From positions 2,000,001-2,064,000 of the forward strand of contig NC_019748.1 of the NCBI RefSeq assembly GCF_000317575.1: a stretch of 64,000 nt of DNA. Direction: 5' to 3'. The notes under the pieces were generated by a model. That model saw nothing but the letters and a program-made list of their open reading frames with translations. It searched no databases and had not been told where the DNA came from. This DNA comes from Stanieria cyanosphaera PCC 7437 (GTDB lineage: Bacteria; Cyanobacteriota; Cyanobacteriia; Cyanobacteriales; Xenococcaceae). The position numbers and the translations under genes are program-made. Within the stretch, counting starts at the first letter, position 1, and each line of letters starts with the position of its first letter. Shown one piece after another: positions 56,970 to 63,124 of the stretch.

Positions 56970-59900
56970 ATGAGTATACAAAAACTTTACAAATTTTGGC
57001 TCAGAACTAGTTTAGCCTTGACAAGCTTTTATTGCCTGACTGGTACAGATTTAGCTCAAGCACAATCGATTACTCCAGATGCGACACTTCCTACACCCAC
57101 AGAAGTAACTCCAACAGCTACAGGAGTAGAAATCACTGGCGGAACAGCAAGAGATATTAATTTATTCCATAGTTTTCAGGAATTTTCTCTACTTAATGGT
57201 AACGAAGCTTTCTTTAACAATGCTAGTACCATTTCTAATATTATTACCAGAGTCACTGGTGGTCAAATTTCGACCATTGATGGTTTAATTAGAGCTAATA
57301 ACGCTAATTTATTCTTTCTCAATCCTGCTGGTATTCTCTTCGGCCCTAATGCTAGCTTGAATATCGGTGGTTCTTTTTATGGTAGTACGGCTGATAGTTT
57401 GATCTTTCCTGAAGGAGAATTTAGCGCAACCAATCCCCAAGCTCCTCCAATTTTAACGATTAATGCGCCAATTGGGTTAGGTTTTCGGGATAATCCTGGT
57501 GAGATTAATGTCAATGGAAGTTCTCTGAGTGTAGATACAGGTGAAACCCTAGCTTTACTTGGTGGTAATGTCAATGCAGAAGGAGGAATCATCGCTGCAC
57601 CTGGAGGAAGAATCGAGTTAGGGGGATTATCAACAGAAGGAACGGTAAATATTAGTGAGGATAGTGGTTTTACTTTTTCTGATGGAATAGCAAGAGCAGA
57701 TGTATCTCTTTCCAATGATGCTTTAGTCAACGTAGCTAATCAAGGAGGAGGGTTTATTAATGTTAATGCTGGTAATCTAAATTTATCAGAAAGAAGTCAA
57801 TTTCGTGGCGGAATAGCAGCAGGGTTAGATGCGACAGGTAATCCAGCAGGAAATATTAATATAAATGCGACTGGAGCAATTACCCTAAGCGGAGACAGTA
57901 GTGTACAAAATTTTATCGACGAAGATGCTATAGGAAATAGTGGTGATATTAACGTCACAGCAGATTCTTTAAGCTTAATTGAAGAGAGTTCTTTTGATGC
58001 TAGTATTTTTGGAACTGGAAATGCAGGAGCAGTAAATATTCAAGCCAATGACATTCTGCTAGATAATAGTACAATTTTCAACCAAGTAACCTCAACAGGA
58101 AATGGTAATGGTGGTGGAGTTGAGATTGATACAGCCAATTTGTTTTTGATTAATGGTGGTGCGGTTACTGCCACTACGTTTGGAAAGGGAGATGCAGGAA
58201 TAATTACTATCAATGCCGACGATACTATTTTAATTGATGGTAGAACTCCCGATGGTGAGTTTATTAGTACGATTGAAAACAATGTCAGACAGGGAGCAGA
58301 AGGAGATGGCGGTTCAATTGAAATTGTCGCCAACAAATTATTTATCGCTAACGAAGCTGAAATAGATTCAAGTACAAAAGGACAAGGAAACGCAGGAGTA
58401 GTAAATATTCAAGCCAATGACATTCTGCTAGATAATGGTGGAATTTTTAACCAAGTGGCGGAAGGTGGAGAAGGCAATGGTGGTGGAGTCGAGATTGGGA
58501 CAACTAATTTGTCTTTGATTAATGGCGGTATAATTAGTGCTAGTACTTTTGGACAAGGCAATGCAGGAGCAGTAAATGTTCAAGCCAATGACATTCTGCT
58601 AGATAATGGTGGAATTTTTAACCGAGTAGCTGAAGGTGCAGTAGGCAATGGCGGAGGAGTAGAGATTAAGACAACCAATCTGTCTTTGATTAATGGCGGT
58701 ATAATTAGTGCTAGTACTTTTGGACAGGGAGATGCAGGAGTAGTAAATATTCAAGCCAATGACATTCTGCTAGATAATGGTGAAATTCTCAACCGAGTAG
58801 AAGAAAATGCAGTAGGCAATGGTGGTGGAGTCGAGATTGGGACAACCAATTTGTCTTTGACTAATGGCGGTAGAATTAGTGCTAGTACTTTTGGACAAGG
58901 CAATGCAGGAGCGGTAAATATTCAAGCCAATGACATTTTGCTAGATAATAGTACAATTTTCAACCAAGTAATCTCAACAGCAAAAGGTAATGGTGGTGGA
59001 GTCGAGATTGGGACAACCAATTTGTCTTTGACTAATGGCGGTAGAATTAGTGCTAGTACATTCGGACAGGGAGATGCAGGAGAGGTAAATGTTCAAGCCA
59101 ATGACATTCTGCTAGATGATGGTGGAATTTTCAACCGAGTAGCTGAAGGTGCAGTAGGCAATGGCGGAGGAGTAGAGATTAAGACAACCAATCTGTCTTT
59201 GATTAATGATGGTGAAATAGATGCTAGTACTTCTGGACAGGGAGATGCAGGAGTAATTACTATTAACGCTATCGATACTATTTCTATATCTAACAGTAGT
59301 ATTTTTAATGGAGTTGAAACTGGTGCAATTGGCAATGCGGGTGGGATTGATATTACTACGGTTAATTTAAATTTAACTAATGGCGGTGAAATAGATGCTA
59401 GTACATTCGGACAGGGAGATGCCGGAGCAGTAAATATTCAAGCCAATGACATTCTGCTAAATAATGGTCGAATTCTCAACCGAGTAGAAGAAAATGCAAT
59501 AGGCAATGGTGGTGGAGTCGAGATTGGGACAACCAATTTGTCTTTGATTAATGGCGGTAGAATAGATGCCAGTACGCTTGGGAAGGGAGATGCAGGAGCA
59601 ATCACAATTCAAGCCAATGACATTTTGCTAGATAGTAGTACAATTTTCAACCAAGTAACCTCAACAGGAAATGGTAATGGTGGTGGAGTTGAGATTGATA
59701 CAACCAATCTGTTTTTGATTAATGGTGGTGCAGTTACTGCCACTACGTTTGGAAAGGGAGATGCAGGAATAATTACTATCAATGCCGACGATACTATTTT
59801 AATTGATGGTAGAACTCCCGATGGTAAGTTTATTAGTACGATTGAAAACAATGTCAGACAGGGAGCAGAAGGAGATGGCGGTTCAATTGAAATTGTCGCC

Positions 59901-61418
59901 AACAAATTATTTATCGCTAACGAAGCTGAGATAGATTCAAGTACAAAAGGACAAGGAAACGCAGGAGTAGTAAATATTCAAGCCAATGACATTCTGCTAG
60001 ATAATGGTGGAATTTTGAACCAAGTAGACGAAGGTGGAGAAGGCAATGGTGGTGGAGTCGAGATTGGGACAACCAATTTGTCTTTGATTAATGGCGGTAG
60101 AATTAGTGCTAGTACTTTTGGACAAGGCAATGCAGGTTTAATCACTATTAATGATAGCGATACTATTTTTATTGATGGAGAAAATAGTCAGGGCGATTCT
60201 AGTGGTATTTTTAATGGAGTTGGCACTAATGCAGTTGGCGATGCAGGTGGAATTAATATTACTACGGCTAATTTAAATTTAACTAATGGTGGTGTTGTTA
60301 ATGCTAGTACATTTGAACGAGGCAATGCAGGTTTAATCACTATTAATGCTAGCGATACTATTTTTATTGATGGAGAAAATAGTCAGGGCGATTCTAGTGG
60401 TATTTTTAATGGAGTTGACACTGATGCAGTTGGTAATGCAGGAGGCATCAACATTACTACGGCTAATTTAAATTTAACAAATGGCGGTGTTATTAATGTT
60501 AGTTCTTTTGGACAAGGAAATGCTGGTAGTATAGTTGTTGAAGCAAATTCTTTGACTCTTGATGCTGGAAAGATTTTTGCTGCTAACGCTCCATCACAAC
60601 CTATTACAAACAATCAAACAGGTGGTAATATTAAGCTAACAGTAGCAGATAATTTAATCTTGCGAAACAATAGTCTGATTTCTGCTAGTGCATCTGAGAA
60701 TGCTACAGGTGGTAACGTAACGATTGATGCGGGGTTTGTAGTTGCCTTTCCTAGCAATGAAAATGGTAATGATATTGTTGCTAACGCAGTACAAGGACAA
60801 GGAGGACAAGTTACCATTAATGCACAACAAATCTTTAATTTAGAAGAAAGAAAAGCAGAACCAGGAAATGGTACTAACGATATTGATGTTAGTTCAGAAG
60901 GTGGTTTAGCTGGTCAAGTTAATATTACAATCTTTAAAGATGATGTTCTTCGCAATGCTAGCGAATTGCCTAGAAATCCTGTTGAACCAGAGCAAACTGT
61001 TGCTCAAGCTTGTTCTTCTCAAGGTATAGCAGAAGGAGGAAATAGCTTTACTGTCACAGGAAAAGGTGGTGTACCTCCCGTACCTACTGAACCAATGTCT
61101 AGCGATACAATTTTACTAGGATCAGGTGAAGCTCCGGTGCAGGGAAGTCGAGGTGCAGAGGAGAGTTTATCAACTAATTCCTCTCATCATCAAAATCAGC
61201 AACCCAAGGGAATTTTAACTTCTCAGGGTTATATTGTTCCTGCACAGGGGATAGTTAAAACAGAAGATGGCAAGGTGATGTTAGTTGGTTATCCTGTCAA
61301 TAATCTTAATCAACGGACTCCTGTTCAATCTCCTAATTGTGTTGACACTCCGCGCAATAAATTGACGCGGATTCTTGGTTCACTGACAGAGCTTACCACT
61401 AACAACTTTCGTTCTTAG
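56970..61418 (+). CDS. TpsA-type filamentous haemagglutinin exoprotein
   Basis: The 1482 residues start with a signal peptide (cleavage likely after AQAQ, about residue 32). The TPS domain (about 35-260, with RVTGGQISTIDGLI and LFFLNPAGILFGPNASL) is the part recognised by TpsB. The rest is a long beta-helical repeat region. Nine copies of a QANDILL(D/N) unit alternate with NGGGVEI and GGRISASTFGQG units of about 52 residues. The C-terminal 150 residues resemble other cyanobacterial haemagglutinin-like proteins (AQACSSQGIA, ILTSQGYIVPAQGIV). Probably secreted to the surface for adhesion; the TpsB at 12-14 kb is one candidate exporter. Confidence 0.93.
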   Translation: MSIQKLYKFWLRTSLALTSFYCLTGTDLAQAQSITPDATLPTPTEVTPTATGVEITGGTARDINLFHSFQEFSLLNGNEAFFNNASTISNIITRVTGGQISTIDGLIRANNANLFFLNPAGILFGPNASLNIGGSFYGSTADSLIFPEGEFSATNPQAPPILTINAPIGLGFRDNPGEINVNGSSLSVDTGETLALLGGNVNAEGGIIAAPGGRIELGGLSTEGTVNISEDSGFTFSDGIARADVSLSNDALVNVANQGGGFINVNAGNLNLSERSQFRGGIAAGLDATGNPAGNININATGAITLSGDSSVQNFIDEDAIGNSGDINVTADSLSLIEESSFDASIFGTGNAGAVNIQANDILLDNSTIFNQVTSTGNGNGGGVEIDTANLFLINGGAVTATTFGKGDAGIITINADDTILIDGRTPDGEFISTIENNVRQGAEGDGGSIEIVANKLFIANEAEIDSSTKGQGNAGVVNIQANDILLDNGGIFNQVAEGGEGNGGGVEIGTTNLSLINGGIISASTFGQGNAGAVNVQANDILLDNGGIFNRVAEGAVGNGGGVEIKTTNLSLINGGIISASTFGQGDAGVVNIQANDILLDNGEILNRVEENAVGNGGGVEIGTTNLSLTNGGRISASTFGQGNAGAVNIQANDILLDNSTIFNQVISTAKGNGGGVEIGTTNLSLTNGGRISASTFGQGDAGEVNVQANDILLDDGGIFNRVAEGAVGNGGGVEIKTTNLSLINDGEIDASTSGQGDAGVITINAIDTISISNSSIFNGVETGAIGNAGGIDITTVNLNLTNGGEIDASTFGQGDAGAVNIQANDILLNNGRILNRVEENAIGNGGGVEIGTTNLSLINGGRIDASTLGKGDAGAITIQANDILLDSSTIFNQVTSTGNGNGGGVEIDTTNLFLINGGAVTATTFGKGDAGIITINADDTILIDGRTPDGKFISTIENNVRQGAEGDGGSIEIVANKLFIANEAEIDSSTKGQGNAGVVNIQANDILLDNGGILNQVDEGGEGNGGGVEIGTTNLSLINGGRISASTFGQGNAGLITINDSDTIFIDGENSQGDSSGIFNGVGTNAVGDAGGINITTANLNLTNGGVVNASTFERGNAGLITINASDTIFIDGENSQGDSSGIFNGVDTDAVGNAGGINITTANLNLTNGGVINVSSFGQGNAGSIVVEANSLTLDAGKIFAANAPSQPITNNQTGGNIKLTVADNLILRNNSLISASASENATGGNVTIDAGFVVAFPSNENGNDIVANAVQGQGGQVTINAQQIFNLEERKAEPGNGTNDIDVSSEGGLAGQVNITIFKDDVLRNASELPRNPVEPEQTVAQACSSQGIAEGGNSFTVTGKGGVPPVPTEPMSSDTILLGSGEAPVQGSRGAEESLSTNSSHHQNQQPKGILTSQGYIVPAQGIVKTEDGKVMLVGYPVNNLNQRTPVQSPNCVDTPRNKLTRILGSLTELTTNNFRS

Positions 61419-62793: not shown

Positions 62794-63124
62794 GGGGCTG
62801 TGGCTCAGTAGGATAGAGCAAGCGCCTCCTGAATTATCGGGCATCATGAGGGAAACTTCATGAATGAATGTGGTCAAATTCAAGGAAACCTAAGTCTAGT
62901 TAAGATAAGGTAATCTTGAGCCAAGCACTATTATTCCTGGTAGTGAAGGTGCAGAGACTAGTTGTAGGTATCAAACAGGAAAATTTTATTCAGATTTCAA
63001 TGCCTACAACATAAAGGCCACCACCTAAAGGCAAACTGTCTAAGGTGAAGAGATAGTCCAGAGAGTGAGGAAACTCACACCAATCTGAAGCGCTAGGTCG
63101 CCGGTTCAAATCCGGCCAGTCCCG
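62794..63124 (+). tRNA. trnR-CCU: tRNA-Arg(CCU) interrupted by a group I intron
   Basis: Exon 1 is 62794-62830 and exon 2 is 63088-63124; joined they give a 74-base tRNA. The acceptor stem GGGGCTG pairs with CAGTCCC (one G-T), the D stem is GCTC/GAGC, the anticodon stem AGCGC/GCGCT, and the T stem GCCGG/CCGGC around TTCAAAT. The anticodon is CCT between C-T and A-A, so the intron sits directly after anticodon base 36. The CCA end is not encoded. A run of T follows. Confidence 0.95.
62831..63087 (+). ncRNA. Group I intron (IC3-like) in tRNA-Arg(CCU)
   Basis: 257 bases. The 5' exon ends in U and the intron ends in G (omega G), as group I introns require. An internal guide GGG at 62839-62841 can pair with the exon CCU (U-G at the splice site). 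P2 is CATGAGG/CTTCATG with a GAAA loop, P9 is GTGAG-GAAA-CTCAC (63065-63078). The P7 strands GAGACTAG (62954-62961) and ATAGTCC (63053-63059), and the P3 pair GTGGT/ACCAC are recognisable, close to the Azoarcus tRNA-Ile intron. No homing endonuclease is encoded. Confidence 0.93.

What the first reader, a model, noticed from the sequence alone, without database searches (positions are those of the whole stretch)
62794..63124. tRNA-Arg(CCU) gene split by a group I intron after the anticodon
The two exons fold into a complete tRNA only when the 257-base insertion is removed. The insertion ends in G, follows a U and has P2, P9 and core elements near those of the Azoarcus tRNA-Ile intron. Among cyanobacteria the tRNA-Leu(UAA) intron is the familiar case; an intron in tRNA-Arg(CCU) is rarer, although related bacterial tRNA-Arg introns are known. 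Gene finders tend to miss such split tRNAs.
Basis: partly seen in the sequence, partly recalled or inferred. Interest (0 to 1): 0.75.

Follow-up and report, generated by a model that had tools for sequence, protein, structure and literature searches.

The report
Self-splicing intron in cyanobacterial tRNA-Arg(CCU)
The only gene for one arginine tRNA in this cyanobacterium is interrupted by a self-splicing RNA of a known type, which belongs to a widespread but apparently unreported cyanobacterial family carrying an unusual extra hairpin at the place where relatives carry a gene for a DNA-cutting homing enzyme.

Summary
Confirmed. 62794-62830 and 63088-63124 are the two halves of a tRNA-Arg(CCU) gene, split after U36 by a 257-nt group I intron (62831-63087; RF00028, 93.8 bits). 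ARAGORN misses it by default but calls exactly this gene in intron mode. A related genome carries the uninterrupted 74-nt gene at 99% identity, and the window's genome has no other tRNA-Arg(CCU). In the own order about 103 of 196 genomes have a related intron, including 12 of 12 of the same family, and 118 matching stretches came from a capped scan of named cyanobacterial contigs. So it is not rare, although no paper I could search reports it at this site. It is absent from the related tRNA-Leu(UAA) introns and from the other clade of tRNA-Arg(CCU) introns. In many relatives a LAGLIDADG homing endonuclease gene sits in this hairpin's loop, its last codons forming the hairpin's 3' strand and P3. 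The window's intron is the endonuclease-free form, now probably immobile. Whether it lost the gene or never had it is not resolved.

The parts
62794..62830 (+). 5' exon of tRNA-Arg(CCU), acceptor 5' strand to U36 of the anticodon (CCU = 62828-62830)
   Evidence: ARAGORN intron mode, fold of spliced tRNA, uninterrupted homologue in G105
62831..63087 (+). group I intron, 257 nt, terminal (omega) G at 63087
   Evidence: RF00028 93.8 bits, E 3e-24; homologues with identical boundaries, all ending AATCTG
62828..62841 (+). P1: exon CCU paired with the internal guide GGG, U62830.G62839 wobble at the 5' splice site, extended by G62831-C62838 and A62832-U62837
   Evidence: fold; never varies in 27 homologues
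62842..62866 (+). P2 with GAAA loop
   Evidence: 8 of 10 pairs with double changes
62870..62875 (+). P3 5' strand (pairs with 63016-63021)
62880..62952 (+). P4-P5-P6 domain, including P6a hairpin 62926-62945
62956..62960 (+). P7 5' strand GACUA, pairs with 63054-63058 (guanosine-binding site)
62961..63010 (+). P7.1 hairpin, 11-bp stem 62961-62971/63000-63010; site of the homing endonuclease gene in related introns
   Evidence: 10 of 11 pairs with compensatory changes, 80% of cells paired; same stem flanks the endonuclease gene in relatives
63022..63047 (+). P8 hairpin
63065..63078 (+). P9 hairpin with GAAA loop
63088..63124 (+). 3' exon of tRNA-Arg(CCU), position 37 to discriminator G; no encoded CCA

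Best explanation
[quoted passage not shown] The precursor folds so that the CCU anticodon pairs with the internal guide GGG (P1, with a U.G at the splice site). Exogenous guanosine bound in P7 attacks after U36, the freed exon then attacks after the terminal G63087, and the exons join to a normal tRNA. An added hairpin, P7.1, sits between P7 and P3. It is the site at which related introns carry a LAGLIDADG homing endonuclease gene. The window's copy lacks the gene and is inherited as a probably immobile, fixed intron. Shown: exon and intron boundaries, core fold, P7.1 with covariation, single gene copy, family distribution and endonuclease in relatives. Inferred: splicing, guanosine dependence, immobility.
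For: RF00028 match over the full model. Spliced product is a canonical tRNA and exists uninterrupted in G105. ARAGORN intron mode gives the same ends. Structure supported by compensatory changes over 27 homologues: 94% of cells paired versus 32-41% when slid, 39 pairs with double changes. P7.1: 10 of 11 pairs with double changes. Relatives with an 832-969 nt intron hold a LAGLIDADG_2 ORF (PF03161, E 1e-33) inside the P7.1 stem. No other Arg-CCU gene among 42 ARAGORN tRNAs and by BLAST. Same-family loci keep psaK upstream.
Against: No RNA data, so splicing and self-splicing are unproven. tRNA-Arg(UCU) is present and could in principle read AGG, so the gene may not be essential. IC3 membership rests on similarity to tRNA-Leu(UAA) introns, not on a subgroup model.
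Confidence: 0.93

Rival explanations
1. P7.1 in the window is the scar of a lost homing endonuclease gene: the ancestor of this intron clade was mobile, and many lineages, this one included, lost the gene and closed the loop. (This refines the best explanation on origin rather than replacing it.)
For: The P7.1 stem is shared by endonuclease-bearing and endonuclease-free introns of one clade and absent from the other clade and from Leu introns. The endonuclease's final codons (YNITATT-stop) remain readable in the same frame in the window (NAYNIKATT-stop). Endonuclease and intron-core distances agree (Mantel r 0.76). Two relatives have broken endonuclease frames (L036, L050).
Against: Those codons overlap P3 and P8, which are conserved for the RNA. 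Equal-cost parsimony gives about 7 changes with the gene absent at the root and 8 with it present, so the direction is not resolved.
Confidence: 0.5
2. P7.1 came first as a structural element and the endonuclease gene invaded its loop several times by homing.
For: Seven gains suffice on the tree; the stem is maintained with covariation in introns without the gene.
Against: The endonucleases form one family at one position and diverge with the core, which points to shared descent of gene and intron or to joint homing rather than separate invasions.
Confidence: 0.3
3. A non-functional relic: the intron no longer splices and arginine AGG codons are read by tRNA-Arg(UCU).
For: tRNA-Arg(UCU) is present; two window ORFs hold no AGG codons.
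Against: All core helices are intact, exon stems are perfect, and exons and core are conserved across about half of the order.
Confidence: 0.04

Closest known systems
[quoted passage not shown]
   Same: Core 62-66% identical to the window intron; same P3-P9 core, tRNA anticodon-loop host, no ORF
   Different: Different tRNA and insertion site; no P7.1, P7 runs straight into P3; the window's genome has an intron-free tRNA-Leu(UAA)
Group I intron of tRNA-Arg(CCU) in alpha-proteobacteria such as Agrobacterium (from own knowledge; Reinhold-Hurek and Shub 1992 is cited in PMC5733544)
   Same: Same tRNA, same insertion region as remembered
   Different: Sequence not available here, so relationship and P7.1 not tested
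Cyanobacterial tRNA-fMet intron, some with an ORF-encoded endonuclease (I-SspI; own knowledge and PMC5733544)
   Same: Cyanobacterial tRNA intron of which some members encode a homing endonuclease
   Different: Different tRNA; the tRNA-Arg relatives here encode a LAGLIDADG_2 protein, whereas I-SspI is of another family as remembered
Azoarcus tRNA-Ile(CAU) group I intron
   Different: Not aligned here; P7.1 not expected in it (own knowledge)

Membership tests
Group I intron | Conserved catalytic core P3-P9 with P7 guanosine site | tested here: met
   RF00028 93.8 bits over model 1-253; helices with covariation
Group I intron | U at the 3' end of the 5' exon paired with G of the guide; terminal G in the intron | tested here: met
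   U62830.G62839 invariant in 27 homologues; G63087 terminal in every intron extracted
Group I intron | Guanosine-dependent splicing | not testable with these tools
   needs RNA work
IC3 tRNA introns | Kinship with cyanobacterial tRNA-Leu(UAA) introns | tested here: met
   62-66% core identity; the P3-P6 part of the Leu introns was itself picked up by blastn at 78-80%
IC3 tRNA introns | P7 joins P3 without P7.1 (as in the Leu introns compared here) | tested here: not met
   11-bp P7.1 inserted, with 10 pairs showing compensatory change; so it is filed as IC3-like, a variant
Mobile (endonuclease-encoding) group I intron | Intact homing endonuclease gene | tested here: not met
   longest open frame in the window's intron is 39 codons; present in relatives
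tRNA-Arg(CCU) | Spliced product folds as a tRNA with anticodon CCU and is the only such gene | tested here: met

The most novel reading that the evidence does not exclude
An unreported, widespread cyanobacterial tRNA-Arg(CCU) intron family in which a LAGLIDADG homing endonuclease gene sits within a P7.1 hairpin, its C-terminal codons doubling as ribozyme helices, with a preserved series from mobile introns to fixed, endonuclease-free introns like the window's that keep the hairpin as a maintained ribozyme element.
Probability: 0.45. Interest if true: 0.6.

Novelty: new variant of a known kind. Interest (0 to 1): 0.45.

Why it matters
A common cyanobacterial tRNA gene is hidden from default gene finders, so tRNA-Arg(CCU) will look missing from many genomes. 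The family contains introns with an intact, a broken and no endonuclease gene at one site in one host gene across many genomes. That makes the proposed homing life cycle (gain, decay, loss) testable in bacteria, and it asks whether a hairpin beside the catalytic centre has become useful to the ribozyme.

Tried and rejected
Phage or plasmid carriage: the intron was not found in phage or plasmid records beyond short core or exon matches. The endonuclease has only about 35% matches in gut phages, none in plasmids and none confirmed in viral contigs. A conserved downstream neighbour was tested: the NUDIX gene lies beside the tRNA only in the window's own locus, while psaK lies upstream in 20 further loci; the first NUDIX test used a wrong frame and was redone. 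An RNA model was not built because the alignment exceeded the column limit. The first exon search timed out, and one structure string had the wrong length. Direction of endonuclease gain or loss was tested by parsimony and is unresolved.

Full report
Observation. The stretch reads as reported. Exon 1 (62794-62830) ends in the anticodon CCU, the intron (62831-63087) begins with G and ends with G, and exon 2 (63088-63124) restores a perfect anticodon stem AGCGC/GCGCT with loop CUCCUAA. ARAGORN finds nothing in default mode but in intron mode returns tRNA-Arg(cct) with a 257-nt intron at position 38. The spliced 74-mer folds canonically. Rfam's group I intron model matches end to end, 93.8 bits, E 3e-24.

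Only copy. The window lies in a 5.54-Mb genome of 6 contigs. RF00005 gives 43 places. ARAGORN tRNAs from them, among them Arg(UCU), Arg(CCG) and Arg(ACG), but no other Arg(CCU). BLAST with the spliced tRNA finds only the two halves in this genome. tRNA-Leu(UAA) is intron-free here.

Relatives. In 196 genomes of the same order the 331-nt gene has relatives in most. By my count of the table about 103 match beyond the exons (best E 1e-14 or lower), including all 12 genomes of the same family, the window's own among them. Genome G105 has the uninterrupted gene at 99% over 74 nt and many others have it at 80-93%. Every intron extracted starts after CCU and ends AATCTG.

Three forms. (A) Short introns without anything between P7 and P3, mostly Nostocales and Leptolyngbyaceae; three of this clade carry an open frame on the other strand, in one case tested an HNH gene. 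(B) Introns of 832-969 nt with an in-frame LAGLIDADG_2 protein (PF03161, E 1e-33; nearest solved chains I-SceI and relatives). (C) Introns like the window's with a hairpin P7.1 of the same stem but a short loop. Non-redundant counts are A 32, B 25, C 82 and 3 with the opposite-strand frame. The core tree separates A from B/C with full support (one short A-form intron, L133, falls among B/C), B and C being intermixed. Cyanobacterial tRNA-Leu(UAA) introns are outside all of them, at 62-66% core identity to the window, and have no P7.1.

P7.1. In the window it is 62961-62971 paired with 63000-63010. Over 27 diverse C-form genes 10 of its 11 pairs show changes on both sides and 80% of cells pair, the two innermost pairs poorly. 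The uninterrupted stem averages 8.2 bp in C and 7.4 bp in B against about 3 in shuffles. In B the gene lies in the loop, and its last codons (SYNITATT-stop) form the 3' strand of P7.1, the 3' strand of P3 and the start of P8. The window still reads NAYNIKATT-stop in that frame. Those bases are also constrained by the RNA, so this is compatible with a lost gene but does not prove one. Parsimony gives 7 changes with the gene absent at the root and 8 with it present. Endonuclease and core distances correlate at 0.76.

Mechanism. Core, P1 wobble, guide, GAAA loops and terminal G are all in place, so ordinary two-step group I splicing is the expected mechanism; this is inference from a well-studied family. 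Without an endonuclease the intron should be immobile; psaK conserved next to the gene in related loci fits vertical descent there.

Literature. [quoted passage not shown] A Nodularia genome paper lists only the Leu intron (PMC3610870). The tRNAscan-SE 2.0 paper states that its program was not designed to detect such introns (PMC8450103). No paper on a group I intron of tRNA-Arg(CCU) in cyanobacteria was found. The key older papers (Paquin 1997 and 1999, Reinhold-Hurek and Shub 1992) could not be read (for the first), so prior notice there cannot be excluded.

Noticed in passing
G000:C1:52424-52759 (L002:1501-1836): A second group I intron (82 bits) in the same genome lies in a thyX gene (PF02511) that also holds a group II intron with reverse transcriptase just upstream and probably a further intron downstream.
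   Followed up: partly
G000:C1:2225452-2225579 (L110:21-148, minus): A 128-nt tRNA-like place (RF00005, 44.8 bits) with an odd, long middle part that ARAGORN does not call.
   Followed up: no
L036, L038, L163, L170, L171, L229: One group of endonuclease genes has ATA where all others have the ATG start, behind a purine-rich stretch; the start may be lost or unusual.
   Followed up: no
L047, L204, L216: Three introns of the form without P7.1 carry an open frame on the opposite strand, in L047 an HNH endonuclease (PF13391); they lie in separate places of the tree.
   Followed up: partly
window 56970-61418: 1482-codon repeat protein with a TPS secretion domain (PF05860) upstream of the tRNA locus.
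   Followed up: no
G038:C1:2026925-2027065 (L061): A partial second copy of an intron-free tRNA-Arg(CCU) gene lies directly in front of the full one.
   Followed up: no
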